Below, one piece after another: positions 11,448-43,096 of a stretch of DNA of 64,000 bases. Source of the DNA: Haloferula helveola (GTDB lineage: Bacteria > Verrucomicrobiota > Verrucomicrobiia > Verrucomicrobiales > Akkermansiaceae). The number at the start of each line of letters is the position of its first letter. Position 1 is the stretch's first letter. The translations under genes and the position numbers were made by a program. Location: assembly GCF_037076345.1 (NCBI RefSeq), contig NZ_AP024702.1, forward strand, positions 2,790,001 to 2,854,000, written 5' to 3'. The notes below the pieces were generated by a model. That model did no database searches. It was not told where the DNA came from and was given only the letters and a program-made list of their open reading frames with translations.

Positions 11448-11546
11448 TCGGCACGGAGCATGGGGAATTGGCGGCGGGAGTGCACATCGATAATCCGGGA
11501 GCCAACATCGCGAAATCCCGATGATGGGCGGCTTCGGCTTGTCAAA

Positions 11547-11562
11547 CAGACCGTGCTGTCTG
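11547..11562. promoter_or_regulatory. Operator-like palindrome upstream of the TetR gene
   Basis: CAGAC, 6 nt, GTCTG: a perfect 5-bp inverted repeat 11 bp before the TetR start codon, in the divergent gap with the alpha/beta hydrolase. Its core (AGACCG, 3 nt, TGTCT) recurs at 12146-12159. TetR proteins of this sort often repress their own gene and neighbours from such sites. Binding is inferred. Confidence 0.55.
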
Positions 11563-11573
11563 CAGGTTTGGGT

Positions 11574-12128
11574 ATGAGTAAGGCACGGGACCGCCTTGTG
11601 GCTACGGCCGGCCGCCTGTTCGGCGAGCGGGGCTACGAATGCGTCGGGATCAACGAGATCATCGCCAAGGCCGAGATCGCCAAGGCCACCTTCTATCAGC
11701 ACTTCCCCAGCAAGGAGGCGCTGTGCGCCGAGTGGTTGCGGACCGAGGCGGAGGATTCGGAGCGGACCCAGCGCAGGCTGCTCGAGGATCCGAGGACGGT
11801 GCGGGAGCGGCTCGAAGACCGGTTCGATGCCCTGCAGCGCTGGCTGACCGAGGAGGATTACCCGGGTTGTCCGTTCTGCACCACGGCGGCGATGACCGAA
11901 GCCGGCGGGGAACTTCGCGAGTTGGTGGCGCTGCAGCGCAAACAAAGCCGGGAGTTCTGGCGGGGTTTGGCGGCCCAGCACGAACCCTCCCACAAGGCGG
12001 CCAAACACCTCGGCGACGCCTGGTTTCTGCTCTACAGCGGGGCGATCACCGAGGCGACGAATCTCCGCGAAACATGGCCGGTGAAGAAGGCGAAGCGGGC
12101 GGCGCTGAACTTGGGCGGCTGGAAATAA
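11574..12128 (+). CDS. TetR/AcrR family transcriptional regulator
   Basis: A 184-residue regulator. The N-terminal TetR helix-turn-helix runs from about residue 5 to 50 (LFGERGYECVGINEIIAKA, then ATFYQHFPSKEAL). The C-terminal ligand domain carries GCPFCTTAAM, the equivalent of the 'GCPLxN' helix of the YxaF/LmrA-like subgroup, here with a CxxC. Start chosen at ATG giving MSKARDRL, where the family begins. The gene sits between two similar palindromes (11547-11562 and 12145-12160), suggesting autoregulation and control of the thioredoxin/nitroreductase cluster that lay next to it before the transposon insertion. Confidence 0.9.
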   Translation: MSKARDRLVATAGRLFGERGYECVGINEIIAKAEIAKATFYQHFPSKEALCAEWLRTEAEDSERTQRRLLEDPRTVRERLEDRFDALQRWLTEEDYPGCPFCTTAAMTEAGGELRELVALQRKQSREFWRGLAAQHEPSHKAAKHLGDAWFLLYSGAITEATNLRETWPVKKAKRAALNLGGWK

Positions 12129-12144
12129 TTCGAATTCCACGGAA

Positions 12145-12160
12145 TAGACCGACTTGTCTG
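12145..12160. promoter_or_regulatory. Second operator-like palindrome (orphaned by transposon insertion)
   Basis: AGAC, 6 nt, GTCT, matching 11 of 14 core bases of the site before the TetR gene. With the transposon and one copy of the target duplication removed, it would lie about 50 bp before the thioredoxin start codon, a typical operator position. Now 2.7 kb separate them. Confidence 0.5.
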
Positions 12161-12166
12161 TTCTCT

Positions 12167-12174
12167 TATCGTTG
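12167..12174 (+). repeat. Target-site duplication, left copy
   Basis: TATCGTTG directly abuts the left terminal inverted repeat. The identical octamer follows the right repeat at 14824-14831. Eight bp is the usual duplication length for IS1595-family elements. Confidence 0.9.
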
Positions 12175-12198
12175 CGGATGTATCCCCTTCGCATACGG
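12175..12198 (+). repeat. Left terminal inverted repeat of the IS1595-type transposon
   Basis: 24 bp: CGGATGTATCCCCTT, 2 variable nt, CATACGG. It matches the reverse complement of 14800-14823 at 22 of 24 positions, the two differences being the central dinucleotide. Confidence 0.9.
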
Positions 12199-12319
12199 CA
12201 AAAAGGACAGACTTGTCTGATTTAGGCGTTACTATAATATTTTTGACCAATGATAGAATATGTCTACCCGCCTCTGCTGGTGCTTGCATGCCGCAATTGG
12301 CTGCGCATCCTGAGCAGTG

Positions 12320-12667
12320 ATGCCAAACGAAATTCCACGAGTTGGAGCGGAGCTTACCCCAGAGCAACGGGAGAAAGCGATGGCGTGGTTCGAAGAGACC
12401 TGCAAGCCGCTATTCCTACCCGAGAAAGGCTGTCCTTCCTGCGGGAACACGAATTGGGAGCTGTGCCCATACATCAACGAGATGCGAACTCTCAACGAGT
12501 CCCGGCATGGCGGCGGTTACGTCTTCTATCCACTTTTGACCATCCAGTGCACAAAATGCGCTCAGATTCTCAATTTCAATGGGATCGACGCTGGAGTGCT
12601 CCCTCCCGGAGCAGACACCACTTTTGCAGGGGAAAAGATCGCAGCGAAAGGAGGGCCCATTGCCTGA
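12320..12667 (+). CDS. Transposon cargo: small protein with two CxxC pairs
   Basis: A 115-residue protein not recognised. Residues 5-30 are a charged helix (ELTPEQREKAMAWFEE). Then come CPSCGN and, about 40 residues later, CTKC, a spacing that could bind one zinc as a split ribbon; an additional Cys lies between them. There is no signal peptide or membrane segment. GTG and ATG are adjacent at the start; the ATG is used. It overlaps the next gene by 8 bp, so the two are probably co-translated. It lies on the more AT-rich cargo segment of the transposon. Confidence 0.6.
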   Translation: MPNEIPRVGAELTPEQREKAMAWFEETCKPLFLPEKGCPSCGNTNWELCPYINEMRTLNESRHGGGYVFYPLLTIQCTKCAQILNFNGIDAGVLPPGADTTFAGEKIAAKGGPIA

Positions 12668-13070
12668 AATCGAACCAGAATCGCATAGCGGAAAGATTAC
12701 GCCTAAGCGCGGCGGTATTTCGGCTCCGCCGCCGCGAACAAGCTATTACGAGGCGATTCACTGCTATCGGAAGGTGAAGACTTACCCCATTCAGGAACAC
12801 GAATTATCCGCATTGGATGAGTCCAATTCCAACTTCACCCTCTGGGCCTCTCTGGGAACTGGGTTCATATTCCTCTCGATCGGGTGCGTTTGGGACACCG
12901 TCAGCGAGTGGAGTTTCACCGGAGTGAGATTTTTCTTCATGGTCTTATTTGGACTCGCCGCAGGCGGAAGCTTTTGGGTGAGCCGTGGGTATAAGAAACA
13001 ACGAGAGAACCGCCTGAAAAACATCAAGGCAGAGGTTGTTGAACACAAGGAGGACAATGGCACCGCATGA
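12660..13070 (+). CDS. Transposon cargo: small two-helix membrane protein
   Basis: A 136-residue protein with a TTG start placed 6 nt after a strong AAAGGAGG Shine-Dalgarno at the end of the preceding ORF; an upstream in-frame alternative has no such site. The N-terminal 55 residues are polar and proline-containing. Two membrane segments follow (WASLGTGFIFLSIGCVW and VRFFFMVLFGLAAGGSFWV), then a basic, charged tail (KKQRENRLKNIKAEVVEHKE). No family recognised. It is probably an integral membrane partner of the CxxC protein, judging only from their overlap. Confidence 0.6.
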   Translation: MPEIEPESHSGKITPKRGGISAPPPRTSYYEAIHCYRKVKTYPIQEHELSALDESNSNFTLWASLGTGFIFLSIGCVWDTVSEWSFTGVRFFFMVLFGLAAGGSFWVSRGYKKQRENRLKNIKAEVVEHKEDNGTA

Positions 13071-13138
13071 ACACCGTTCTTTCGAACAAATCAACAACAT
13101 ATTGACAGATAGGCTACTGTAACCACCACACACACCAC

Positions 13139-13495
13139 ATGGACTCACAAAAAAACTTTGTAGAAAACTCCCTGACCGTCTCCGTGATGCCTCGCGGATC
13201 GGACGGTTATTTCTGCTTCGTGGCTCAGTGCCACGAGTACGACATCTGCGTCCAGGGATCATCCCTCGATGAGTGCCAGTCTAGGTTTGTTACGGCCGTC
13301 GAAGGTCACATTGCCCTCGCCATTTCAATGGGACGGACGCCGTTCGCTGACCTCCCTGCTCCTCCCGCGGAGATTCTGGCAGAGTTGACGGGACGGGTTC
13401 CAACGCAGGCGTCAAGCAGGCCCATCGGGCGGCGTGCTGCAACCGGCGTGGACCTCCAAAATCTCGGTGGCCGCGCAACCTTTGCCATCGCCTGA
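13139..13495 (+). CDS. Transposon cargo: HicB-like antitoxin (probable)
   Basis: A 118-residue protein. Residues about 10-65 have the shape of a HicB partial RNase-H-like fold: YFCFVAQCHEYDICVQGSS corresponds to the 'Y.A.CPELPGC..QG.T' strand pair, followed by a helix (LDECQSRFVTAVEGHIALAI). The C-terminal half is proline- and arginine-rich without a clear DNA-binding domain. The following gene resembles a HicA toxin, which supports the call, although the usual order is toxin first. No experimental or profile support is available here. Confidence 0.5.
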   Translation: MDSQKNFVENSLTVSVMPRGSDGYFCFVAQCHEYDICVQGSSLDECQSRFVTAVEGHIALAISMGRTPFADLPAPPAEILAELTGRVPTQASSRPIGRRAATGVDLQNLGGRATFAIA

Positions 13496-13511
13496 AGTGG
13501 CCGCATATCCG

Positions 13512-13763
13512 ATGGCTCCCGCAATACGCCGGGGCAACTTCATAGACCGGCTCTTCTCGGATTACGGAGTTCGGGAGAGGATTGTAGATCTAGGGTCTGG
13601 AGAGATCCACGTATTTTGGGAGCGCTCCGTTGATGGGACTGAGAAAATCATGCAGTTCCCGCTGGTTGGTGAGCCAGAGGAAATGCTGATGCCCGACGTG
13701 ATCCGAGTGGTATGCACGGCGCTTGAGATTGACCCGGCTGACTTCGGTCTAAATCTAGGGTAG
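13512..13763 (+). CDS. Transposon cargo: HicA-like small protein (possible toxin partner)
   Basis: An 83-residue protein. The segment DLGSGEIHVFWERS could correspond to the 'GSHHVF' catalytic strand of HicA, and PDVIRVVCTALEIDPADF matches the form of its C-terminal helix ('PGTLRSILRQAGLS.EEF'). The conserved His is shifted by two residues relative to HicA, so it may be divergent or unrelated. Either GTG (13497) or ATG (13512) may start it; the ATG gives a family-like length. The gene begins just downstream of the HicB-like stop, consistent with a two-gene unit. Confidence 0.4.
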   Translation: MAPAIRRGNFIDRLFSDYGVRERIVDLGSGEIHVFWERSVDGTEKIMQFPLVGEPEEMLMPDVIRVVCTALEIDPADFGLNLG

Positions 13764-13773
13764 ATTCAGATCA

Positions 13774-13953
13774 ATGGACCTTCGCAGCGCTAGGAAACAC
13801 GGGAAGCTTGAGGAATTCATCCGCGATCGTGAAGCGGATGAACCCAAGGGCGACGCCTCCCGCCTCAAGCGGACGGTTGAGGCGATGGCTCGGGGCGAAG
13901 GAACGAAGAAACCAGAGCCGGAAACATCTCCTTCGGATTCTGCCGGAAATTGA
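13774..13953 (+). CDS. Transposon cargo: 59-residue charged protein
   Basis: A short ORF starting 10 bp after the stop of the HicA-like gene. Residues 8-40 are helical and highly charged (KHGKLEEFIRDREADEPKGD, then RLKRTVEAMARG), and the tail is Ser/Pro-rich. Small proteins with the pattern 'KL..FI...E...P.GD...F.R....M' are widespread in bacteria and uncharacterised. The tight spacing in the cargo cluster supports it being real. Its last 89 bp overlap the end of the transposase gene on the other strand. Confidence 0.6.
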   Translation: MDLRSARKHGKLEEFIRDREADEPKGDASRLKRTVEAMARGEGTKKPEPETSPSDSAGN

Positions 13954-14737
13954 ACCGGCATTCGAACTCCTTGACGTATTTCTCAAGGTGAGTCTCTGAA
14001 ACAGCCACGTGGGTGCTGGTCAGACCCTTTTTCAAGTGGGACCAGAACGACTCGATGCCGTTTGTGTGGCACGGGCCGTCCACGTATTCCTTCTTGGAGT
14101 GGTTCACGGTGTCGCGAGTGTAGCCGAATCGCTCAAGGTCGGTGTAAACATGGCTTTCGTCCGAGTAGATTGTTGATCCTTTGGCGATGCCGTCCTTGAG
14201 AAGCGGGAGAATCCTGCCCTTGCTGGCAAACGGAACGACGCGGGCAACAACCTTGCCGTCCCGCTGGAGCATCCCGAAAACCACGCCCTTGTTGTCCCAG
14301 CGTTTGGCGCTGGTGGTCTTGCCGCCGACGTAGGTCTCATCCACTTCCACAGTCCCGGCAAGCGTCGGGTCGCCGTCCACCCAAGCCATGTGCTTGCGAA
14401 TCTCGTGACCCATGCGCCATGCGGTCTTGTAGGTGACTCCGAGCTGGCGTTGCAGCTCCTTGGCCGAAACTCCGTTGCGAGTCGTGGTGAACAGGTAGAT
14501 GGCGAAGAACCAGAGTTGCAGCGGAGTCCGGGTCCGGTGAAACGGGGTGTCCACGGTCGGGTGCAGGTGGTGGCCGCAGAACTGGCAGGAGTAGGCGCGT
14601 TCCGCCTTGATCCGATACCACTTGGCCTCGCGCTCGCACTTCGGGCAGGTGTGACCTTGGCCGAACTTGCACTCGAAAATGTGCTGCAAGCAGGACTCAT
14701 CGTCCGGGAACTGGGCGAAGAACTCGCGGATCGTCAT
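13865..14737 (-). CDS. IS1595-family (ISXO2-like) transposase
   Basis: A 290-residue DDE transposase. An N-terminal zinc ribbon (CPKC at 31-34, CQFC at 51-54) is followed by a helical DNA-binding segment (VSAKELQRQLGVTYKTAWRM). The catalytic domain has EVDETYVGG (Asp133), YSDESHVY (Asp193) and NGIESFWSHLKK (Glu229 as the third acidic residue), then a C-terminal FECRFNFR motif typical of the family. Start taken at the ATG of MTIREFF, which has AAGGA 8 nt upstream; an in-frame ATG 13 codons earlier lacks this. No frameshift or stop is seen, so it appears functional. Confidence 0.93.
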   Translation of the reverse strand: MTIREFFAQFPDDESCLQHIFECKFGQGHTCPKCEREAKWYRIKAERAYSCQFCGHHLHPTVDTPFHRTRTPLQLWFFAIYLFTTTRNGVSAKELQRQLGVTYKTAWRMGHEIRKHMAWVDGDPTLAGTVEVDETYVGGKTTSAKRWDNKGVVFGMLQRDGKVVARVVPFASKGRILPLLKDGIAKGSTIYSDESHVYTDLERFGYTRDTVNHSKKEYVDGPCHTNGIESFWSHLKKGLTSTHVAVSETHLEKYVKEFECRFNFRQNPKEMFPALVSSFLRPEPSPQPSA

Positions 14738-14799
14738 CGACTGTTCCTTTTTGCGCTCACCGGCTTTCGGTCTCATGCGCGGATACTACTCAAATGACA

Positions 14800-14823
14800 C
14801 CGTATGTCAAGGGGATACATCCG
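14800..14823 (-). repeat. Right terminal inverted repeat of the IS1595-type transposon
   Basis: Reverse complement of the left repeat at 12175-12198 except for the central dinucleotide. It begins 63 bp upstream of the transposase start codon, so it may overlap the transposase promoter. Confidence 0.9.
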
Positions 14824-14831
14824 TATCGTTG
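14824..14831 (+). repeat. Target-site duplication, right copy
   Basis: TATCGTTG, identical to 12167-12174. It is followed by native sequence with a small CCCGC/GCGGG hairpin (14835-14849) in what was the thioredoxin leader. Confidence 0.9.
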
Positions 14832-14866
14832 AATCCCGCGATCAGCGGGTTGACCCCACAACAACG

Positions 14867-15181
14867 ATGAAGACGAGAGAACTGACCTCCGCGAGTTTTG
14901 ACGATGTGGTTTCCGGCAGCGCCGCTCCGGTGCTGGTGGACTTCTGGGCCCCGTGGTGCGGTCCCTGCCTGCAACTGGGTCCGGTGATCGACCAAGTGGC
15001 CGAAGAGACCGCCGATCAGGCGGTCGTGGCCAAGGTCAATGTCGATGAGGCCCGCGATCTGGCCGTCCGCTACAACATCCGCAGCATCCCGACGCTGCTT
15101 GTCTTTCGCGGCGGCGAGGTGGTCGAGCGCTTGCAGGGCGTCCAGCCGAAGGAGCGGATTGCCGCCGCCCTGAGTGCCTGA
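14867..15181 (+). CDS. trxA: Thioredoxin
   Basis: A 104-residue thioredoxin with the full WCGPC active site (Cys31 and Cys34), preceded by VLVDFWAP, and the cis-Pro loop SIPTLLVF. It reduces protein disulfides in the cytoplasm. There is no signal peptide. It heads a cluster with a PPOX fragment and a nitroreductase, a combination suggesting flavin or redox stress chemistry rather than the main housekeeping thioredoxin. The transposon lies 43 bp upstream of the ATG and has displaced the presumed operator and promoter. Confidence 0.93.
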   Translation: MKTRELTSASFDDVVSGSAAPVLVDFWAPWCGPCLQLGPVIDQVAEETADQAVVAKVNVDEARDLAVRYNIRSIPTLLVFRGGEVVERLQGVQPKERIAAALSA

Positions 15182-15213
15182 CGTTCGGAGTTCCGGCGAA
15201 TTCCCAATCGGCG

Positions 15214-15417
15214 GTGCCCGGGCCACAAGCCCGGGTGCCGCCGGAGCTGCTCGGTCAGACCGAGCGGTTGTTCCGCATCGAAGTCATCGGGCTCGACTGG
15301 AACTGCCCGAAATTCATCACGCCCCGATTCACCCGCGAGGAGCTTGCCGGAGTGACGCAGCCCCTCACCGACCGGATCGCCGAGCTCGAAGCCGAGCTTG
15401 CGCGGCTGCGGTCCTGA
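15214..15417 (+). pseudogene. C-terminal remnant of a PPOX-family FMN-binding protein
   Basis: The frame encodes about 67 residues ending at a stop at 15417. It contains GLDWNCPKFITPRFT, the strongly conserved C-terminal signature ('DWNCPQHITPR') of a pyridoxamine-5'-phosphate-oxidase-like family of about 200 residues, followed by the usual PLTDRIAELEAELARL coil. The N-terminal two thirds, including the FMN-binding barrel, are absent: the frame upstream runs into the end of the thioredoxin gene and shows no family motifs. A GCCCGGGC/GCCCGGGT repeat sits at the junction. It is best read as a deletion remnant in the thioredoxin-nitroreductase cluster. Confidence 0.6.
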
Positions 15418-15446
15418 GCTCCCTTCCAACGAAATCGCTTACCCAC

Positions 15447-16049
15447 ATGAATGCCATCGAAACCATCGAAAGCCGCCGCTCCGTCAAACACTACGATCCC
15501 GAGCATGTGATGTCGGAGGAGGACCTGGCGAAGCTGATCGAGCTCACCAAGCTCGCGCCTTCCTCCTTCAACATGCAGAACTACCGCCTTCTGGTCGTTC
15601 GCGATCCGGAACTGCGGAAGCAGCTCCGCGCGGTGGCATGGGATCAGGCGCAGGTCACCGATGCCTCGGTGCTTTTCCTGATGTGTGCGGACCTCAATGC
15701 CCACCTCGCCGACCCGGCGAAATACTGGTCGCACGCGCCGCAGGAGGTTCAGGACATCCTCGGCCCGGCGATCCAGCCGTTTTACGAGGGCAAGGAACAG
15801 CTGATCCGGGACGAGGCCGTGCGCTCGAGCGCTCTGGCCGGGATGACCCTGATGATCGCGGCCAAGGGGATGGGCTACGAGTCCTGCCCGATGGTCGGCT
15901 ACGATCCCGAAGCGGTGGCCAAGCTGGTCAACCTGCCGTCCGACTACGTGCTCAGCTTCATGATCGCGGTCGGAAAGCAAACCAAGCCGGCGTGGCCACG
16001 CGGTGAGCGCCTGCCCGACTCCGAGGTGGTGAGCTATGATCGGTTCTGA
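15447..16049 (+). CDS. Nitroreductase family protein
   Basis: A 200-residue FMN-dependent oxidoreductase. It begins with the classic phosphate-binding start ETIESRRSVKHYDPE, then LAPSSFNMQNYRLLVV (FMN contact) and AAKGMGYESCPMVGYD near the C-terminal third. The family reduces nitro compounds, quinones or enones with NAD(P)H; the substrate is unknown. The length is normal. It closes the cluster with thioredoxin and the PPOX remnant and may be a target of the TetR regulator upstream, by analogy with similar redox clusters. Confidence 0.9.
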   Translation: MNAIETIESRRSVKHYDPEHVMSEEDLAKLIELTKLAPSSFNMQNYRLLVVRDPELRKQLRAVAWDQAQVTDASVLFLMCADLNAHLADPAKYWSHAPQEVQDILGPAIQPFYEGKEQLIRDEAVRSSALAGMTLMIAAKGMGYESCPMVGYDPEAVAKLVNLPSDYVLSFMIAVGKQTKPAWPRGERLPDSEVVSYDRF

Positions 16050-16314: not shown

Positions 16315-16417
16315 TCCTTTAGGATTTTCTTCCGAGGGACTAACGGCAGGGGAGGGCTGACCGCCCCCGATCAGCCGCGGGTCATGACGGAAACCGGGAG
16401 TGAGGTGGCGGTTCGGC

Positions 16418-16446
16418 GGACAAGCGAGGGCGCTTGTCCCTACCTT
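16418..16446. repeat. Hairpin repeat with trailing CTACCTT (family A)
   Basis: GGACAAGCG, AGGG, CGCTTGTCC, then CTACCTT: the same build as 381-409 and 37730-37759, with compensating changes in the stem. Confidence 0.65.
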
Positions 16447-16495
16447 GGCCGGGGATGATCGCTGGACAGGCTCGGGATGCCGCCGACTCTGCGCG

Positions 16496-17929
16496 GTGAA
16501 CCTTCTGCTGACCGGCGCCAACGGCTACATCGGGCTGCGGCTGCTGCCGACTTTGCTTGAAGCCGGGCACACGGTGACGGCGCTGGTTCGCGACCGGCGG
16601 CGGTTTCCCGCCGAGGAGTTCGATACCGACCGGCTCAAGGTGATCGAGGGCGATCTGCTCGACCCGGATTCGCTGCCGAGTCTGCCGGAAGATCTCGATG
16701 CGGCCTACTACCTCGTCCACTCGATGGGCGGCGGAGGAGATTTCGCCGAACGGGAGGAGGCGGTTGCCCGTCACTTCACCCGCTGGCTCGACACTGGGGA
16801 TTGTCGGCGGGTGATCTACCTGAGTGGCTTGGTCGACGAGTCCGGCCCGTTGTCGAAGCATCTCGAGTCGCGGCGGCACGTCGAGGACGTCCTGCGCAGC
16901 GGAAAGGCGGCGCTGACGGTGCTGAGGGCGTCGATCATCGTCGGCTCGGGTTCGGCGTCCTTCGAGATCGTCCGCGATCTCGCCGAGAAACTGCCGGTGA
17001 TGGTCTGTCCGCGATGGGTCAACACACGCTGCCAGCCGATCGCGATCCGTGACGTGATTTCCTACCTGCGCGGCGTGCTGGAAATCCCGGAGACCGAGGA
17101 CGAGGTCTATGACATCGGAGGCCCGGAGGTGCTCCGGTACCGCGACCTGCTCGCCGGCTACGCCGAGGTGCGCGGGCTGAAGAGATGGTTCGTGCCGGTG
17201 CCCTTCCTCAGCCCCCGGCTGTCGTCTTGGTGGCTGTACCTGATGACCTCGACCCGGTTCACCCTGGCTCAGGCACTGGTCGATTCGATGAAGCACGAAA
17301 CGGTCTGCCGCGAAAGCCGGCTGCGGGAAATACTGCCTCTCGAACTCTCGAGCTACCGCGTCGCCGTCGAGCGCGCCTTGTCCCGCATCGCCCAGAACCG
17401 GGTGCCGTCGAGCTGGATCGACTCGCTGGCGGCGGGATCGATGGATCCGCGGTTCATCGATGCGATCAAGGTGCCGGAGCACGGGGTTTTCACCGACCGC
17501 CAGCGGGCTCCATTGCAGGCCCCGCAGGACGAAGTCATCGATGCGGTTTGGTCGCTCGGTGGCGAGAAAGGGTGGCCGTCGATGAACTGGGCGTGGGACG
17601 TCCGCGGTGCCATCGACCGGCTGTTCGGGGGGATCGGCACCCGCCGTGGCCGCCGGCATCCCACCGAACTGAGACCCGGTGACGCGCTCGACTTCTGGCG
17701 GGTCGTTTTGGCCGATCGGAAGGCCGGGCGTCTGATCCTCTACGCGGAGATGAAGCTTCCCGGTGAAGCGTGGTTGGAGTTCGCGATCCGGGGTGGAGCG
17801 CTGGAACAGACCGCGACTTTCCGACCGCAGGGACTGCTCGGCCGACTCTACTGGTTCTCCGTCCTGCCGGCCCACTGGATCCTCTTTCCGCGGATGGCCA
17901 AGCGCCTCGCGGGTGTTGGGGGAGGGTAG
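16496..17929 (+). CDS. SDR/NmrA-like NAD(P)-binding protein with DUF2867 C-terminal domain
   Basis: A 477-residue two-part protein. The N-terminal Rossmann domain starts at the GTG with LLLTGANGYIGLRLLP (dinucleotide-binding TGxxGYIG), and has VIEGDLLD, YYLVHSMG and VIYLSGLVDE, as in atypical extended SDR/NmrA proteins. The C-terminal part (about 290-477) is a DUF2867 domain with the SWIDSLAAG...WSLGGEKGW...LDFWRVV...LYAEMKLPGEAWLEF pattern. Such fusions are common and uncharacterised; they are expected to bind NAD(P)H. The GTG is chosen because the Rossmann strand begins there. The protein appears complete and is followed by a 204-bp gap before the PATR gene. Confidence 0.85.
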   Translation: MNLLLTGANGYIGLRLLPTLLEAGHTVTALVRDRRRFPAEEFDTDRLKVIEGDLLDPDSLPSLPEDLDAAYYLVHSMGGGGDFAEREEAVARHFTRWLDTGDCRRVIYLSGLVDESGPLSKHLESRRHVEDVLRSGKAALTVLRASIIVGSGSASFEIVRDLAEKLPVMVCPRWVNTRCQPIAIRDVISYLRGVLEIPETEDEVYDIGGPEVLRYRDLLAGYAEVRGLKRWFVPVPFLSPRLSSWWLYLMTSTRFTLAQALVDSMKHETVCRESRLREILPLELSSYRVAVERALSRIAQNRVPSSWIDSLAAGSMDPRFIDAIKVPEHGVFTDRQRAPLQAPQDEVIDAVWSLGGEKGWPSMNWAWDVRGAIDRLFGGIGTRRGRRHPTELRPGDALDFWRVVLADRKAGRLILYAEMKLPGEAWLEFAIRGGALEQTATFRPQGLLGRLYWFSVLPAHWILFPRMAKRLAGVGGG

Positions 17930-18133
17930 AATGCGGGCTAGCGGATTGTGGCGGAAATGGGTCGCCGCTCCAGAGTGCCCGTAATCCTCGTCATCTGCAG
18001 CAAACGTCTTGAAGTGGGAGGATTCCGACTGTTTGGTAAGCGTTACGGGTGTCGATGAACCCAGACGCCCGCAGGACTGTGAACCCCATGTCCGCCCCGC
18101 TTGATTGCGGGAGTATCCACACTGCCCTAACCC

Positions 18134-21100
18134 ATGAAACCCCATCGACTCGCCCTCCTCGGGCTGGGCCTTAGCACCGCGTCCTTTGCCCAGGCGCCCT
18201 CCGCTGAATCGCGCACTGCCACCGTCAGTGAAGCCGGACCCGCCGTGAGCGGCAACGTGCTCACCGATGTCGAAACCGTCGCCCAGTATTCCTTCGACAA
18301 TCCCGGATTCGACGAAGGAACGCTGCTGCAGAACTGGACCGACACCGTCGGCACCAGCTTCCCATCGAGGCAGGTCTTCAACAACAACGCCTTCGCCGGC
18401 GGACGGGCCACCGGAGGCTTCGCGAACGGCTCCGGCAATCAGGACTCTTCGCACCCGACATTGGTGCTCACGTCCCCTTCGTTCGATCTGTCGTCCCCGA
18501 TCGTGATCCGCTTCGGCCTCGCGGGCGGCGCAGGAGCCGCTGCGGCGCCGGCCGCCGATCTCGCGTCGATTCCCGCCGCAAGCGGCAATGGAGGCTTCCA
18601 GGGTCTGGCACTGCGGCGTCTTTCCGATGACGCCTACGTCGCGTGGGCCCGACGCTCCGGCAACAATGCCGCGTACGAGACCCAAACCTTCAATTGGCAG
18701 GCGCTGGCGGCGATTGAAGCGGCGAATCCGGCGGATACCTATGTCCTCGACTACATCGACTACTACCACGGCGGCTGGGGCTTCGGCGGCGTGGATGACG
18801 TGACCATCTTCGGAGTCTCCGAGTCCGAAGTGGCGGTGGACAATCCGCCAACTGTCACCGCCGGGGCCGCGGCCTACGGATCGGACGTGCCTTCGGCGAC
18901 GAACCCGGCCGGCACGCTGAACGACGGGTTTCTCTACAATCCCGTGACTCCGACCAATCCGATGCCGGACACCGGTTTCAACGGACCGGACGGGTTCCAC
19001 AACAACAGTGGCAACGGACCTGCGACCCTGCTCTACGTTTTGGGCAGCCCGATTCTCGACGGCGCATCGAATCAGATCGCCGTCGATCTTTACGGTCGAA
19101 ACGCCAACCAGGATCGCGACAACGATGTCGACATCGCCTTCCTGGATGCGTCGGACGTGGTCTTGGGAGAGGTTCTCGGTGCCGCGATCCCGGACGGGGG
19201 CACTCCCCACCTGCGGGTGACCTCGACGGCTGCTGGAGTGACCGACGGATCGAGCATCGCGAAGATCCGGATCACGGGCAACGACTCGGACGGCACCCCC
19301 GCCACCACCAACAACTTCACGCTGATGGAAATGCGGGTGGCGAACCTGCAGGCGGACTTCGACCACCTGACCGACACGGTCACCGTGACCGAGGTTGAGG
19401 GGTCGGCGGCCAACGTCGGAAATCCGGTGACGCTCGCCTCGGGAGCCGAGGTGACCATCAACGCGGACGGCAGCTACACCTACGATCCCAATGGTGCGAT
19501 CGCGGTCGCCGGAGCACCCGTTCTCGATCCGGTCGGATTCACGATCGGCTACGGCGGCACCGACACCTCGAATACCCTGACGGTCAGCGTGGTGGATGCC
19601 GACGCGGTTTTCTATGTGGATGGCGCTTGGGCAGGTCTCGCGTCCGGCGATCCGATCGCCGATGCCGACGCCGGAACAACTGGTGCTCAGCCGGCGACCT
19701 TCGGGACCGACGCGTTCGCCACGATCAGCGAGGCACTCTTCGCCGCGCATGTCGGCTCGACCGTGGTCCTGAATGACGGGGCTTACGCTGAGGACATCGG
19801 TTTGGTGGGCGAGCGGCGCCTTCGGGTGACCGGCACCGATGCGGCCCAGACCGTCGAAATCGATCTCGTGGTCGGAGCGGCAGGCACCTCGATCGAAGTC
19901 CAAGGCACGTCCGTGCTGCTCCTCGCCGAGCCGGATCTCGACAGTGATCTCTCTCTGGCCGCCGGTTCCGTGTTCGCACCGGGCCCCGGAAATGTGGCTG
20001 GCGTGATTTCGGGGGATGGCGCCGTCGCGGTAGATCCAGCGGGTTCGCTCAGCCTGAGTGGCGCCAATACCTACACGGGAGGCACAACGATCGTTTCGGG
20101 TCGTGCGCAGGCCGACTCGTTGCAGGCTTTCGGCACGGGCGACGTGACGGTGCAGCCGTCCGGTCAGGCGTTTCTGGTCAGTACGGCAGGCGCCTTCGCC
20201 AACAACTTCACGCTTGAGGGCCAAGGTTGGACGGAAGGAGCCGGAGATCTTGGCGCACTTCGCTTCAACACCGGCACCGAGGTTGCGGGTGACATCACGA
20301 TCGCCGCGGCAGGTGCCCGGGTGGTTTGCTACAACGGAGCCGCCGCCACTCTCTCGGGGGATCTGCTCGGATCGGGCAATCTCGAATTCAACTACGAGGC
20401 CAACGCCACGGCGAACGGCACGCTCTCCTTCACCGGTGACGCGAGCACCTTCACGGGTGAGTTCTATGTCGCGAACGGCACCTTGGTGAGCGATTCGACT
20501 TTCGGCGCGGACCTCTATGTGGGCGACTCCGGCACCCTTTCGGGATCCGGCACGGTCAATGGCACCCTGACTTTCGGCACGACCGGCGGCGCCACGCTGA
20601 TCCGAGACCCGGATGGAGGCTCCGGATTCTCCGCGGCCGATGTGGTCCTGAACGGAACCACCACCGTCGACTTCGTTTCGTTGCCCGACACCTTCACACC
20701 CTTCGCCCTCTTCGACTACACCGGGACCATCGACGATGGCGGTGATGGCGTGTCGAACAACTTCGTGATGGCGAATGCCGGCTCCTACCGGCTTCCGGTC
20801 TTCAGCGACAACGCGATGACGATCGAAGTCTCGCTCAGCGGCAAGACGCTGACCTTCGTCGGAACCACGCCGGACTGGGACATCAATTCCAGCGTCAACT
20901 GGACCGACGGAATCAATCCCGAGCGCTTCTACAACGGCGATGCGGTGATCTTTGACGACACCGTGAGCGGTGGTTTCGCAGGCGTGGTCAACATCACCGG
21001 CACACCGGTGCCGTCGGCGATCACGGTCAACAACTCGACGGGCGACTACGAGATCGTCGGAGAGTTCTCCGGCGACGCTGCTCTGACGAAGTCGGGGACC

Positions 21101-24100
21101 GGAGTCCTTACCCTGACTCCTCCGGATGAAGATATGCCCTACACCGGCCTGATCACGATCAACGGCGGCCGGGTTGAGCTGGGGACCGATGACGGCGCGC
21201 TGCGCAATGCGAGCGTCCGTGTGAATGCGGGCGGCACCTTCGCCTACCTCGCGGGCAATGCCGACAACGACACCGAGACCGACTTCGAACTGGCCGGTGG
21301 CACGCTCGAGTTCAACGAAAGCATGGCGATCTGGCCGGCCGGGAATCCGATCACCCTTGTCACCGGTACGACGAGCACGGTGACCGTCAACGCGGGCACG
21401 GTAAACACGGCGCTGTCGACGATCGTGGGAGACGGCAGCCTCATCAAGTCGGGTGCGGGCACCTTGCAATTCCAGAGCGCCGAGCCGGTGACCTACACCG
21501 GTTCGACAACAGTCGAGGAAGGGCTGCTGCAGGTCGACGGAGATGTGGCCACGCAGTCGGATGATTGGACCGTGGAAGGTGGAACTCTTCGGCTCGGCAA
21601 CGACAGTGGCGCGCCGATCGCCAACCTGCCGCCTGCATCGACCGTGGTGATGACCGATGGCACGTTCGACTACAGTGGTAACGTTGAGACCGTCGCCGGC
21701 CTGACGATGGACTCGACCACCGGGACTCCGACGCTCTTCGTCAATCCGGCCAGCAGTGACCTGACGGTGGATGTGCTGACCCTCACCGGCACGGACAACC
21801 TCGTGCGCTTCTCGACCCTCACAGGAACGGGTCCGTTCCCGGTGATCACCTACAACTCGACGCTCACCGGCACCGCAGGGGTCAACCTGCGGCTCGACAA
21901 CGACTTCCTCCGCCCGGGCAGTTGGGCGGACAACGCTGGCACGCTGGAAGTCACGCTGCTGCCTTTGGCGACCGAGTGGACCGGTGCCACGAGCGCCTTC
22001 TGGGAAGTGGGTGGCCTCGACAACAACTGGACGACCGCGCCGGGATTCTACTTCAACTTCGACACGGTGACCTTCGGGGACACCGGTGCCGGAGCGATCA
22101 CCATCGATGACCTTGAGAATGACCCGATCCTTCCCGGCGGCATCGTCTTCAACAACACCGCCGGCAACGACTACACCTTCACCGGCCAGTCGATCGGCGG
22201 AGCCGGCAGCCTGACGAAAAACGGCGACGGAATCGTCGAGCTCAACAACACGCAGAACACGTTCACCGGCGGTGTGGCGGTCAATGACGGCACGCTCGCT
22301 CTGGGAACGGGCGGCGGTACCGGTGCAGTCCGGGGCGTCGTGACGGTGACCGGCGACGGCAGTCCTTCGAGCAGTGTGCTCCGGCTCGATGTGAACAATG
22401 CGATGGGCTACACCGGTGGACAAAAGGTCAACGAACTCAACCTGTTCGACGGCGCATTCGTCGACAACCTGGGCGCCCAGGACAACGGTTGGAACTACGT
22501 CCTGAACATGCGCGGCAGCGCGATGCTTTCGAGCGCGCCGGACGGGCGCTTTTCGTTCGGTGGCCCGGGCGGAGGAACCGGATCGGAGATCAACGTGCTC
22601 GCGAGCGCGACCACCTCGGAAATAGGTGGAGCGATCACGATCCGTGAAAACAATCCGGGCAATCAGCTTCCGATCGATGTCGAGGACGGCGCGGCGGCAA
22701 CCGACTTCCTGCTTTCGGCGAACGTCAACGAGAACCGCGGTTTCGTGAAGACCGGAGCCGGCAGGATGGAGCTTACCGGCCGCAAGACCGGCACGGGGCC
22801 GATCCGGGTCAGCGGAGGAACGCTCGCCGCCATCGGCACCGGTTCCCTGTCGTTCGACGGCTACGATGGCGCCTCGGTCATCACGGTGGACTCAGGTGCC
22901 GTGCTCGAACTGGACGACTGGCAGTACTACGAAGGCAACGCCACCCAGACCTCGCTCGGTGGCCTGCGCAACAACGCCAATGCCATCGTCATCGACAACG
23001 GCACGATCCGGATGAACGGCGTCGGCGACTGCGCCTATGACCGGGGGTTCACGATCAATGCCGGCGGAGCGACACTGGAGGCGAACGGAGCGAACCGCTG
23101 GGTGCTTGAGGTGGGAACCGCGCTGGTGTTGAACGGAAATCCCAACCTGTTGCTAACCGGCAGCGGCACGGGGCAGATCGACAAGGCCTACTTCGGGGCG
23201 GGCGGGATCACCAAGACCGGCAGCGGCACGTGGTTCCTCAACGGCGCCAACACCTACACCGGGCCGACCGTGGTCAGCGACGGAGCCCTCGGTGGCACCG
23301 GCTCGGTGACTTCGGATGTGACGGTGGCTGCCGGAGCCTCGTTGGAGCCGGGCGCCTCGGTCGGCAGCTTCGATATCACGGGTAACCTCGACATTTCCGC
23401 GCTCGCCGGCGGAGCGGGAACGCTCGACTTCGAACTGGATGCGATCGGCGCGAGCGACCAGATCACGGTGACCGGAACCACGACCATCGGTAGCGGTCTG
23501 CTGGGCTTTTCGGACTTCGTGTTCACGGATCTCGGCGGACTCGAGAACGGCACCTACACGCTGATCAGCAGCGGCTCCCTTTCGGGTTCGCTCGACGGTG
23601 GAAACCTGTCCGGACCGATCGGTGGCGCGACCGCCACCTTGCAGGTGACCGGGAGTGATATCGAACTGGTGGTCACCGGCGCCCTGTCGCCCTTCGAGGA
23701 CTGGATCGAGAATACCGTTTTCGCCAATCCGGGAGTCCTTGCCTCGCCGGCCGACAAGCTGCCCGGAGCCGATCCTGATGGCGACGGGATCGACAACATC
23801 GGCGAGTATGGCTTCGACGGTGACCCGACCGATGGAGCAAACAATGGCAAGGTGTTCCTGGTGATCGCCGACGGTGATGACAATCCGGACACCGATCCGG
23901 ACCTCATTCTGACCGTGGCGGTTCGCTCCACGGTGGTGTTCACGGGCGGTGCTCCCGCGACCGGAAGCGCGGATGGAGTCGACTACAGCATCGAGGGCAG
24001 CCTCGACCTTTCGTCCTTCACGGAAACCGTGAACGTCGAGAGCGTGGCCATTCCGCCAGCCGGGGCTCCGACCCCGAATGCCGGTTGGGAATACCGGAGC

Positions 24101-40663: not shown

Positions 40664-43096
40664 TCAGGGGACATGGGGCGCCACGGTGATGTCGTAGGTG
40701 CCGGTCGCTTGGTTCGTCGCCTCACCGACCTCGATCGTGTAGGTGCCGGTGGACGGGAGTTGGATCACGCCCATGTCGCCGAGGTTGAATTGCTGGGAGT
40801 CGAGTTGGGAGTCGGTCGGGTCGAGCAGGCGGTAGTTCACCGTGGAAAGGCCGACGAAAGATCCGTGGGAGATGTTGACGAACTCGCCGGCGGTGCCGGT
40901 GAAGGTATAGACATCGAACGCGCCGGGAACCTCGATGTTTCCGGCACCGGCGCCCGGCACGCCGTCGGAGACGGTATCTCCGATGCTGATCGAGAAGCTG
41001 TCCGGGGCGGGAATGTCCGTGATGGCGATGGTGTAGGTACCGGTGTCGTCGTTGGGAGCCTCACCGACCTCAAGGGTGTAGGTTCCGCTCGCGGGAAGTT
41101 CGACGGTGGCGATATCACCGAGGTTGAACTGCTTGTTGCCGATTTCCGCATCGGACGGATCGAGTAGCCGGTAGTTGATGGTGTTGACTCCGGAATAGGA
41201 CACCATGTTGACGAAGATCTTCTGGCCGGCTGTTCCGGTGAAGGTGTAGCGGTCGTATGCGCCGGGGGTCTCGATGTTGCCGGCTCCGCTTCCGGGTATG
41301 CCGTCCGACACGGTGTCGCCGATCGCAATGGCGAAGACATCGGGTGCGGGGACTTCGGTGATCCCGATGGTGTAGGTGCCGGTATTGTCGTCCGCTGCTT
41401 CTCCCACTTCCAGCCGGTAGGTGCCCGTGGCCGGAAGCTCCAGCGTGCCGATGTCGCTGAGGCCGAAGGCGGAGTATGCGATTTGCGAGTCGGAAGGATC
41501 GAACAACCGGATGTCGATGAGTTGCGGCCCCGAGTAGCTGACCTGGTCGATGAAGATCTTCTGCCCGGCGGTGCCGGCAAAGGTGTAGTGATCGAAGGCA
41601 CCCGGGGCCTCGATGTTGCCGGCGCCCGCTGCAGGGATCCCGTTGGAGACGGTGTCGCCGATGGCGATACCGAAGACATCCGGCGGCGGCACTTCGGTAA
41701 TGGCGATGGAGTAGGTTCCGGTCCGGTCGCTGCCGGCTTCGCCGACCTCGAGCCGGTAGGTGCCGGTCTCGGGCAGTTCCAGCGTGCCGACATCGCTGAG
41801 ACCGAATGCGGAGGAGAAAACGAGGCTGTCCGACGGATCGAACAATTTGAAATCAATGAGATTCAATCCGGAGAAACCGAGCGAGTCGACGAAGACCTTC
41901 TGACCCGCGGCTCCGGTGAAGGTGTAGTGGTCAAAGGCACCGGGGGTCTCGATGTTGCCTGCTCCTGGACCGGGCGCTCCGTCGGAAATCGTGTCGCCGA
42001 TGCTGATGCCGAACGACTCTGGGTCGGGCACTGCGGTAAGCCCGATCGAGTAGGTGCCGGTGTCATCGTTTCCGACCTCTCCGACCTCGATGGTGTAGGT
42101 GCCGTTCGAGGGAAGTTCCACGGTGCCCATGTCGCCCAGATTGAACTGCTGGCTGTCGAGCTCCGTGCTGGCAGGATCGAGAAGGCGGTAAATCAAAGTG
42201 TTGGTGCCGCTGTAGGAGAGGGTGTTGAGGAAGACCCTGTCGCCGGCGTTGGCGTCGAAGCTGTAGATGTCGAATGCTCCGGGTGCTTCGATCGTGCCGG
42301 CGCCGGGGGCGGGGTCGTCCGGGGTGATCGTGTCACCGACCGCGATGACGAATGTTTCGGGGGCGGGGATCACGCTGAGATTGATCGCATAGGTTCCCGA
42401 ACCGCCGAGTCCGGTGTCGCCTACGATCAGCACATATTCACCATCGAGCGGTAGGGTGACCGGGCCCATGTCGCCGAGTCCGAATGCCGAGCTCTTCACC
42501 GGGTTCCCATAAGGATCGAACAAACGGTAGTCGTGAAGATTGATGGAGAGGTCGTGAGAGACGGCATCGACAAACACGCCCGTGCCGGCCACGCCTTCGA
42601 AACGGTAGATGTCCGCGTGGTTGGGCATCTCGATATTGCCGGCACCGGCCGCCGGAATTCCGTCGGAGACCGAGGCGTCCAGAGTGATGTCAAAGACGTC
42701 CGCGTTGGCTCCGTCCACGCCGTCGACCGGATTGAGGAATCCACCGGTTTTCAGTTCCGTGCGGTCGGTGACGCCGTCGCCATCGGAGTCGGTGGTGTCG
42801 GTGGCGAGATCCCTGCCGAAGATATCGAAGAACCCGCGGGGCGAGCCTGAGGCATCGAACTCACGCACGACGGTGGGCACAGCTGCCGGGACGATCGCCA
42901 TCCCGCTTGGTGTGGTGCCGGTCAGTGGCAGCAGGTCACCGTCGAATCGATCGAGAACGACGATGAGGTCGGTATCGGTGATAGCTGTGACTTCGAAACG
43001 GCCGGTATCCAGGCCGAGCTCCGAGATGTCGATCGATTGGGCGGATGCGGTCCAGAGCAGACAGTTCGCAAGGCAGGTTGGGAGGAGGATTCGCAT
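40664..43096 (-). CDS. Secreted protein with six tandem PPC-like repeats
   Basis: An 810-residue protein with signal peptide MRILLPTCLANCLLWTASAQ. Residues about 25-130 include DTTDSDGDGVTDRTEL, a calcium-binding-type linker. The remaining 678 residues are six repeats of about 113 residues, each 'F.I.IGDT.SDG.PG.GAGNIE.PGAFD.YTF.G.AG..' then 'RLLDPSDS...FNLGD.GT.ELP..GTYT.EVGE....TGTY.I', close to the bacterial pre-peptidase C-terminal (PPC) fold. No catalytic domain or C-terminal sorting signal is seen. Likely a surface or secreted binding protein. Confidence 0.8.
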   Translation of the reverse strand: MRILLPTCLANCLLWTASAQSIDISELGLDTGRFEVTAITDTDLIVVLDRFDGDLLPLTGTTPSGMAIVPAAVPTVVREFDASGSPRGFFDIFGRDLATDTTDSDGDGVTDRTELKTGGFLNPVDGVDGANADVFDITLDASVSDGIPAAGAGNIEMPNHADIYRFEGVAGTGVFVDAVSHDLSINLHDYRLFDPYGNPVKSSAFGLGDMGPVTLPLDGEYVLIVGDTGLGGSGTYAINLSVIPAPETFVIAVGDTITPDDPAPGAGTIEAPGAFDIYSFDANAGDRVFLNTLSYSGTNTLIYRLLDPASTELDSQQFNLGDMGTVELPSNGTYTIEVGEVGNDDTGTYSIGLTAVPDPESFGISIGDTISDGAPGPGAGNIETPGAFDHYTFTGAAGQKVFVDSLGFSGLNLIDFKLFDPSDSLVFSSAFGLSDVGTLELPETGTYRLEVGEAGSDRTGTYSIAITEVPPPDVFGIAIGDTVSNGIPAAGAGNIEAPGAFDHYTFAGTAGQKIFIDQVSYSGPQLIDIRLFDPSDSQIAYSAFGLSDIGTLELPATGTYRLEVGEAADDNTGTYTIGITEVPAPDVFAIAIGDTVSDGIPGSGAGNIETPGAYDRYTFTGTAGQKIFVNMVSYSGVNTINYRLLDPSDAEIGNKQFNLGDIATVELPASGTYTLEVGEAPNDDTGTYTIAITDIPAPDSFSISIGDTVSDGVPGAGAGNIEVPGAFDVYTFTGTAGEFVNISHGSFVGLSTVNYRLLDPTDSQLDSQQFNLGDMGVIQLPSTGTYTIEVGEATNQATGTYDITVAPHVP

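What the first reader, a model, noticed from the sequence alone, without database searches (positions are those of the whole stretch)
12175..14823. IS1595-type transposon carrying five cargo genes, with intact ends and target duplication
The sequence shows 24-bp inverted repeats matching at 22 of 24 positions, flanked by an identical octamer TATCGTTG on both sides, an intact ISXO2-like transposase and a block of five small plus-strand ORFs inside the ends. An 8-bp duplication is the family rule (established). The cargo is AT-richer than its surroundings and none of its genes has a recognised role in transposition, so this may be an undescribed passenger-gene member.
Basis: partly seen in the sequence, partly recalled or inferred. 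Interest (0 to 1): 0.75.

Follow-up and report, generated by a model that had tools for sequence, protein, structure and literature searches.

The report
IS1595 transposon with exchangeable cargo genes
This is a real, complete jumping gene carrying four extra genes of unknown function; in its relatives the jumping part and one small partner gene stay the same while the extra genes differ from copy to copy and sometimes look like defence or toxin-antitoxin genes.

Summary
Confirmed: 12175-14823 is a complete IS1595-family element (inverted repeats 22/24, 8-bp duplication TATCGTTG, intact DDE transposase). A same-genus genome shows the empty site between tetR and thioredoxin. It is single-copy and absent from 17 other genomes of the genus. 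Passenger genes in this family are known ('transporter IS'), so the kind is not new.

What comparison adds: all 16 close-clade elements that I could delimit (15 alphaproteobacterial, plus the window) carry passengers; two ISfinder-named distant members, treated alike, do not. ORF5 is not cargo but a small gene under protein-level selection, overlapping the transposase's 3' end in relatives with unrelated cargo. Between elements with different cargo, DNA similarity ends inside ORF5 and returns only in the last 23-28 bp: a backbone with a cargo slot. The two repeat mismatches fall in a TTGACA promoter hexamer. Relatives' cargo includes M78 peptidase, PIN, Cas2-like, DUF3800 and a PADLOC candidate (PDC-S42), but most has no known family. 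Here it is a zinc-ribbon/two-TM pair plus two small genes; function is inferred, not shown.

The parts
12167..12174 (.). target duplication TATCGTTG, left copy
   Evidence: empty site in L049
12175..12198 (+). cargo-side inverted repeat (with TTCGCA in place of TTGACA)
12205..12218 (+). sequence like the TetR-operator-like site outside the element (12146-12159), purpose unknown
   Evidence: not significant as a loose motif
12320..12667 (+). ORF1, 115 aa, four-cysteine zinc-ribbon-like cargo protein
   Evidence: weak Pfam zinc-ribbon matches below cut-off; relative in L149, E 7.5e-4 in a search of 347 genomes, 8e-8 pairwise
12660..13070 (+). ORF2, 136 aa, cargo protein with two predicted TM segments, overlapping ORF1 by 8 nt
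   Evidence: sequence; hydropathy
13139..13495 (+). ORF3, 118 aa, cargo protein, weakly UPF0150/HicB-like
   Evidence: PF21748 E 0.0047, 17.3 bits, cut-off 27.3; low-confidence model, pLDDT 49.6
13512..13763 (+). ORF4, 83 aa, cargo protein; predicted helix-strand-strand-strand-helix fold
   Evidence: model pLDDT 81.6, pTM 0.67; no HicA sequence signal
13774..13953 (+). ORF5, 59 aa, backbone gene convergent with and overlapping the transposase 3' end by 89 nt
   Evidence: profile of relatives E 5.6e-8; selection on relatives
13865..14776 (-). IS1595-family transposase, 303 aa
14783..14810 (-). predicted transposase promoter TTGACA-16-TAGTAT, its -35 inside the repeat
   Evidence: 3 promoter-like sites in the region, 1.1 expected by chance; this one the best, 10 of 12
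14800..14823 (-). transposase-side inverted repeat
14824..14831 (.). target duplication TATCGTTG, right copy

Best explanation
A complete IS1595-family transposon inserted between a tetR and a thioredoxin gene, making an 8-bp duplication (shown by sequence and an empty site). It has a fixed backbone - a transposase-side repeat with a built-in promoter hexamer, the transposase, and the small convergent gene ORF5 - and a cargo slot between ORF5 and the far repeat (shown by comparing relatives; applied to this copy by homology). The slot here holds ORF1-ORF4, not needed for transposition: an overlapping zinc-ribbon/two-TM pair and a second small pair, most likely self-contained stress, addiction or defence modules (inferred). 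ORF5, whose frame runs antisense into the transposase end, most likely tunes transposase expression or activity (inferred, not shown).
For: Ends and duplication with a chance control; empty site; transposase domains and conserved acidic residues; passengers in 32 of 33 delimited elements, 15 of 15 in the close clade, plus L158; common backbone and slot boundary in 5 of 5 pairs with different cargo; 94.5% identical transposases with different cargo; ORF5 homology and place and selection; promoter asymmetry of ends, 28 of 33 against 8 of 33.
Against: No copy with the same cargo was found, so this cargo has not been seen to move as a unit. The closest transposases (71-80% identical: L011, L014, L024) could not be delimited. 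24 of 56 distinct relatives gave no accepted ends. The slot boundary was mapped in alphaproteobacterial copies only. Most larger cargo proteins scanned match no Pfam family above cut-off, and ORF1-ORF5 match no PADLOC model at E up to 1. ORF5's function is untested.
Confidence: 0.8

Rival explanations
1. An ordinary one-off: an IS1595 element that once trapped nearby genes, with cargo of no selective meaning.
For: Cargo genes ORF1-ORF4 have no close relatives in the sets searched; passenger genes in IS1595 elements are known.
Against: All 16 delimited close-clade elements carry passengers; cargo types recur in different backbones, e.g. an M78 peptidase in L005, L009 and L117; ORF1 has relatives in the same overlapping arrangement elsewhere.
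Confidence: 0.2
2. The slot is a dedicated place for toxin-antitoxin or anti-phage modules, and ORF3-ORF4 is a diverged HicB-HicA-like pair.
For: PIN, PIN_10, DUF4145 and DUF3800, M78 and Cas2-like cargo in relatives; PDC-S42 matches in L120 and L118; ORF3 weak UPF0150 match; ORF4 predicted topology.
Against: ORF4 scores within shuffles against 19 HicA sequences, 67 of 100 shuffles as good or better; the HicA family search finds nothing in this genome; the ORF3 model is poor; 11 of 15 relatives' cargo proteins scanned match no PADLOC model at E up to 0.05.
Confidence: 0.3
3. ORF5 is not a gene: its apparent conservation is a by-product of overlapping the transposase in antisense.
For: 89 of its 180 nt overlap the transposase.
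Against: In relatives the part outside the transposase is conserved as protein: pN/pS 0.21 over 36 pairs of 9 copies, against 1.70 and 1.74 in the shifted sense frames (one antisense frame, which shares the wobble position, gives 0.24).
Confidence: 0.07

Closest known systems
Transporter IS (tIS) of the IS1595 family, e.g. tISCpe8 and MTnSag1 (Siguier et al. 2009 and Lyras et al. 2009 not seen; known from passages of PMC3129680 and PMC5704250)
   Same: IS1595 transposase, inverted repeats, passenger genes inside the ends.
   Different: Here unknown small genes and no resistance or mobilisation gene recognised; an ORF5-like partner and a fixed cargo slot are not mentioned in the passages seen.
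Plain IS1595 insertion sequences (ISPepr2, ISEc70)
   Same: Transposase family, repeats and 8-bp duplications by the same script.
   Different: 1081 and 1018 bp, 152 and 38 bp beyond the transposase match, no ORF5-like frame seen.
Tn3-family transposons with toxin-antitoxin passengers (PMC7157771, abstract and outline)
   Same: Small, exchanged modules beside a constant transposition part.
   Different: Unrelated transposase and size; the toxin-antitoxin nature of the window's cargo is not shown.
Zinc-ribbon/two-TM gene pair on 2.7-kb E. coli and Salmonella plasmids
   Same: Zinc-ribbon gene overlapping a gene for a small protein with two hydrophobic segments.
   Different: On a plasmid; the membrane partners are not significantly alike in sequence.

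Membership tests
IS1595 insertion sequence family | DDE_Tnp_IS1595 domain | tested here: met
   PF12762 9.6e-37; NF033547 200 bits, cut-off 75
IS1595 insertion sequence family | N-terminal zinc finger (all groups but IS1016, per PMC8101967 passage) | tested here: met
   PF12760 1.9e-8, 34.6 bits, cut-off 25.4
IS1595 insertion sequence family | 8-bp target duplication | tested here: met
   TATCGTTG twice, empty site
IS1595 insertion sequence family | terminal inverted repeats | tested here: met
   22 of 24
IS1595 insertion sequence family | placement in a named subgroup (ISPna2, ISSod11 and so on) | not testable with these tools
   ISfinder is not held
Transporter IS (tIS) | passenger genes unrelated to transposition inside the ends | tested here: met
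   ORF1-ORF4 inside the ends; unrelatedness to transposition inferred
Compound transposon (two IS copies flanking cargo) | two IS copies | tested here: not met
   one copy in the genome
HicBA toxin-antitoxin | HicA family match for ORF4 | tested here: not met
HicBA toxin-antitoxin | HicB/UPF0150 match for ORF3 | tested here: inconclusive
   E 0.0047, below cut-off
Known anti-phage defence systems | PADLOC model match of ORF1-ORF4 | tested here: not met
   no family at E up to 1
Mobile activity | transposition observed | not testable with these tools
   needs an experiment

The most novel reading that the evidence does not exclude
A clade of IS1595 transposons is a dedicated carrier of exchangeable defence or addiction modules: the transposase works with a small obligate partner (ORF5), and cargo is replaced in a fixed slot between ORF5 and the far repeat by an unknown exchange process. 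These 2-kb elements would then be among the smallest cargo-swapping transposons and a source of undescribed small systems, ORF1-ORF2 of the window being one.
Probability: 0.3. Interest if true: 0.75.

Novelty: new variant of a known kind. Interest (0 to 1): 0.5.

Why it matters
IS1595 members are described as usually having a single transposase gene (PMC8101967, passage). In this clade every element whose ends I could find carries passengers, with a small partner gene and, where mapped, one cargo boundary. That makes two questions testable: what ORF5 does for transposition, and how a 2-kb element exchanges its cargo. The slot is also a search rule for small uncharacterised gene modules, some of which match a defence candidate.

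Tried and rejected
Tried without result: ORF1-ORF4 in plasmids and viral contigs (72, 73, 33, 34); ORF3 in 260 family genomes, own only; ORF4 in 347 phylum genomes, own plus one marginal hit (E 0.0046, with an in-frame stop), judged chance; Rfam on 11500-15500, no match; transposase in 387 phylum genomes at E 1e-50, own plus two at 39% identity; solved structures for ORF3 and ORF4, only weak partial matches. ORF4 as a HicA member was rejected on sequence. Common descent of ORF2 with the two-TM partners was not accepted. ORF2 was not searched in whole genomes.

Rows dropped: one search left out duplicates L114 and L102, and L023 and L122, whose best pairs had 7/8 duplications; L101 was kept with 7/8. 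L104 and L105 are 99% alike and count twice in the 33. Of 61 loci given to, 3 had no transposase hit; of the 56 distinct others, 32 were accepted and 24 not. Nine of those 24 have little DNA on one side (L003, L006, L010, L014, L016, L020, L021, L024, L115); 15 had more room but no accepted pair. In the close clade (42% identity or more) 10 were not delimited: six near contig ends (L003, L006, L010, L014, L024, L115) and L011, L121, L122, L123, with a split match (L011) or in-frame stops reported; such stops are also reported for some copies that I did delimit.
Full report
Observation. Repeats 12175-12198 and 14800-14823 match at 22 of 24 positions and are flanked by the same octamer, TATCGTTG. 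A control with 114 mismatched left/right halves of related loci gave no hit with an 8/8 duplication and 2 with 7/8. The minus-strand transposase (13865-14776) carries the IS1595 zinc ribbon and DDE domain above their cut-offs, the IS1595 equivalog domain and conserved acidic residues D146, D206, E242. The element occurs once in its 5.68-Mb genome and in none of the 17 other genomes of the genus held; one of these has a 38-bp match (E 1.8e-5) that I treat as chance.

Insertion. In same-genus genome G008 a tetR gene (69% protein identity) is followed about 310 bp on by a thioredoxin gene (69%), without the element. The window's flanks joined with one octamer align through the junction to L049 2096-2200 (score 71; best of 200 shuffles 36; left flank alone 46). 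L050, L051 and L052 show no such alignment (best scores 26-30); L052 has a thioredoxin gene near its tetR, L050 and L051 none within the stretch held.

Relatives. Transposase relatives came from named genomes, plasmids (17), the family (22), phylum (35), the genomes of the named loci (42), the order of Boseongicola (46) and viral contigs (40). A script looked for repeat pairs with duplications. Thirty-three elements with the window were accepted; 32 have at least 700 bp beyond the transposase match, and 15 of 15 in the close clade (42% identity or more). A sixteenth, L158, was added later (2527 bp, duplication GCACGCAA). Apart from the window, the close-clade elements with ends are alphaproteobacterial where a title or order is known. 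The same script finds ISPepr2 (1081 bp) and ISEc70 (1018 bp) to be plain and L028 a plain 977-bp IS, so it does not force passengers. The transposases most like the window's (L011, L014, L024; 71-80% in their best segment) could not be delimited.

Backbone and slot. Five pairs of elements with different DNA in the cargo region were compared by blastn. In 5 of 5 the backbone similarity starts at position 1 and its last block ends at position 993 of the first-named element, inside ORF5, about 34 nt from its start codon; one pair (L117/L005) has an unaligned stretch in the transposase. After that only chance-like matches (E 0.13 or worse) are seen until the last 23-28 bp. Transposases 94.5% (L117/L119) and 90.4% (L033/L118) identical carry unrelated cargo, whereas an M78-peptidase recurs in L005, L117 and L009 at 38-44% protein identity; L004 and L096 (transposases 65% identical) share both cargo proteins (51-61%), and L104, L105 and L111 share theirs in part. 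The far repeat keeps its own variant, TCAGCA in six of seven such copies, whatever the cargo, which suggests replacement inside the slot rather than fresh use of the transposase-side end (inference).

End asymmetry. The transposase-side repeat holds TTGACA, the -35 of the best of three promoter-like sites in the region (1.1 expected by chance). A TTGACA-like hexamer (5 of 6 or better) is found in 28 of 33 transposase-side and 8 of 33 cargo-side ends, 14 of 15 against 2 of 15 in the close clade. Both mismatches between the window's repeats fall in this hexamer. The predicted -10 ends 6 nt before the ATG, so the message may be leaderless (inference).

ORF5. A single-pass profile of six alphaproteobacterial copies, the window not among them, found the window's ORF5 at E 5.6e-8 among 7137 ORFs of the fetched loci (some loci overlap, so ORFs repeat). 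Hits below E 0.02 all lie 28-170 nt from a transposase 3' end; the first elsewhere has E 0.021. Of the 16 delimited close-clade elements, 12 have a hit at E 0.05 or better; L008 (0.14) and L097 (0.99) are weaker, and L007 and L009 appear only in the earlier search with smaller background and iteration. In 23 codons outside the transposase pN/pS is 0.21 over 36 pairs of 9 copies; shifted sense frames give 1.70 and 1.74, antisense frames 1.71, 0.24 and 2.58, the 0.24 being the frame that shares the wobble position. In plasmids the L033 version has two matches: its own element, and a Leisingera stretch that also holds a transposase fragment (E 1.4e-9). No Pfam family matches the three copies scanned at E up to 0.05 or 0.1, nor the window's at E up to 1. 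Its place and direction suggest control of the transposase; that is inference.

Cargo of relatives. Pfam above cut-off: M78 peptidase in L117 (3.7e-21), PIN in L017 (1.1e-11), PIN_10 in L098 (3.3e-16), DUF4145 in L027 (3.3e-11) and DUF3800 in L103 (4.8e-5). Just below: Cas2-like in L158 (6.3e-5; VapD-like by eye, recalled). Seven of eight larger proteins and six of ten had no family above cut-off; the proteins were picked by me. PADLOC: of 15 relatives' cargo proteins, PDC-S42 in L120 (9.5e-16) and L118 (1e-7), capP for the M78 peptidase (1e-32, read as generic M78 similarity), a marginal Cas6 match in L116 (0.0014), and nothing for 11. Twelve of the 15 close-clade elements encode a protein with a predicted TM segment, counting ORF2 (simple hydropathy on mechanically chosen ORFs). 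A defence or addiction theme is suggested, not proved.

Cargo of the window. ORF1 is related to a zinc-ribbon-like protein in L149 (E 7.5e-4; 8e-8 pairwise). In L149, and on 2.7-kb plasmids of E. coli and Salmonella (15 records; one examined), the zinc-ribbon gene overlaps a gene for a protein with two hydrophobic segments, as ORF1 overlaps ORF2 by 8 nt. The membrane proteins are not significantly alike; they share gene order and, by eye, a YPI motif. In L153 a marginal relative (E 0.0096) overlaps a weakly SIR2-like gene.

Literature. Passenger genes in this family are in print: PMC3129680 (passages) describes 'transporter ISs', citing Siguier et al. 2009; PMC5704250 (passages) names tISCpe8 and MTnSag1. 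PMC8101967 (passages) gives family features. PMC7371123 (passages) gives 700-1287 bp for IS1595 elements in Ralstonia. PMC12561309 and PMC11092175 were seen as passages, PMC7157771 as abstract and outline. Siguier et al. itself was not seen. Searches listed no title or abstract start about an ORF5-like partner or cargo slot in IS1595 elements; five of these lists were cut short (41, 76, 97, 112, 113), so this is not proof of absence.

Verdict. A known kind (IS1595 transporter IS), a real and intact member, with a backbone/slot organisation and a conserved partner gene that I did not find described.

Noticed in passing
11548-11561, 12146-12159, 12205-12218: The only two exact AGAC-N6-GTCT sites of the window flank the tetR gene; a 14-mer one mismatch from the second lies just inside the element's left end. 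As a loose motif it is not significant.
   Followed up: partly
L149:888-1746; L154:1180-1853: Overlapping zinc-ribbon/two-TM gene pair on a chromosome and on a 2.7-kb E. coli plasmid, possibly an undescribed mobile two-gene module.
   Followed up: partly
L153:605-1743: Small zinc-ribbon-like gene overlapping a weakly SIR2-like gene (PADLOC SIR2 5e-4; Pfam SIR2_2 0.021).
   Followed up: partly
L104 and L105: 3935-bp elements in two genomes of the family, 99.2% identical but with different 8-bp duplications (TTTTCAAA, TAAAATTT), which suggests separate insertions of one element with cargo.
   Followed up: no
L158:5006-5329: Cas2-like (VapD-like by eye) 107-aa gene as cargo of a Geminicoccaceae element, next to its ORF5.
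   Followed up: partly
41210-42127: Tandem array of 2.7 copies of a 339-bp unit, 74% matches.
   Followed up: no
16382-22423: A 2013-aa open frame on the minus strand beginning with TTG, arginine- and histidine-rich, perhaps antisense to plus-strand genes.
   Followed up: no
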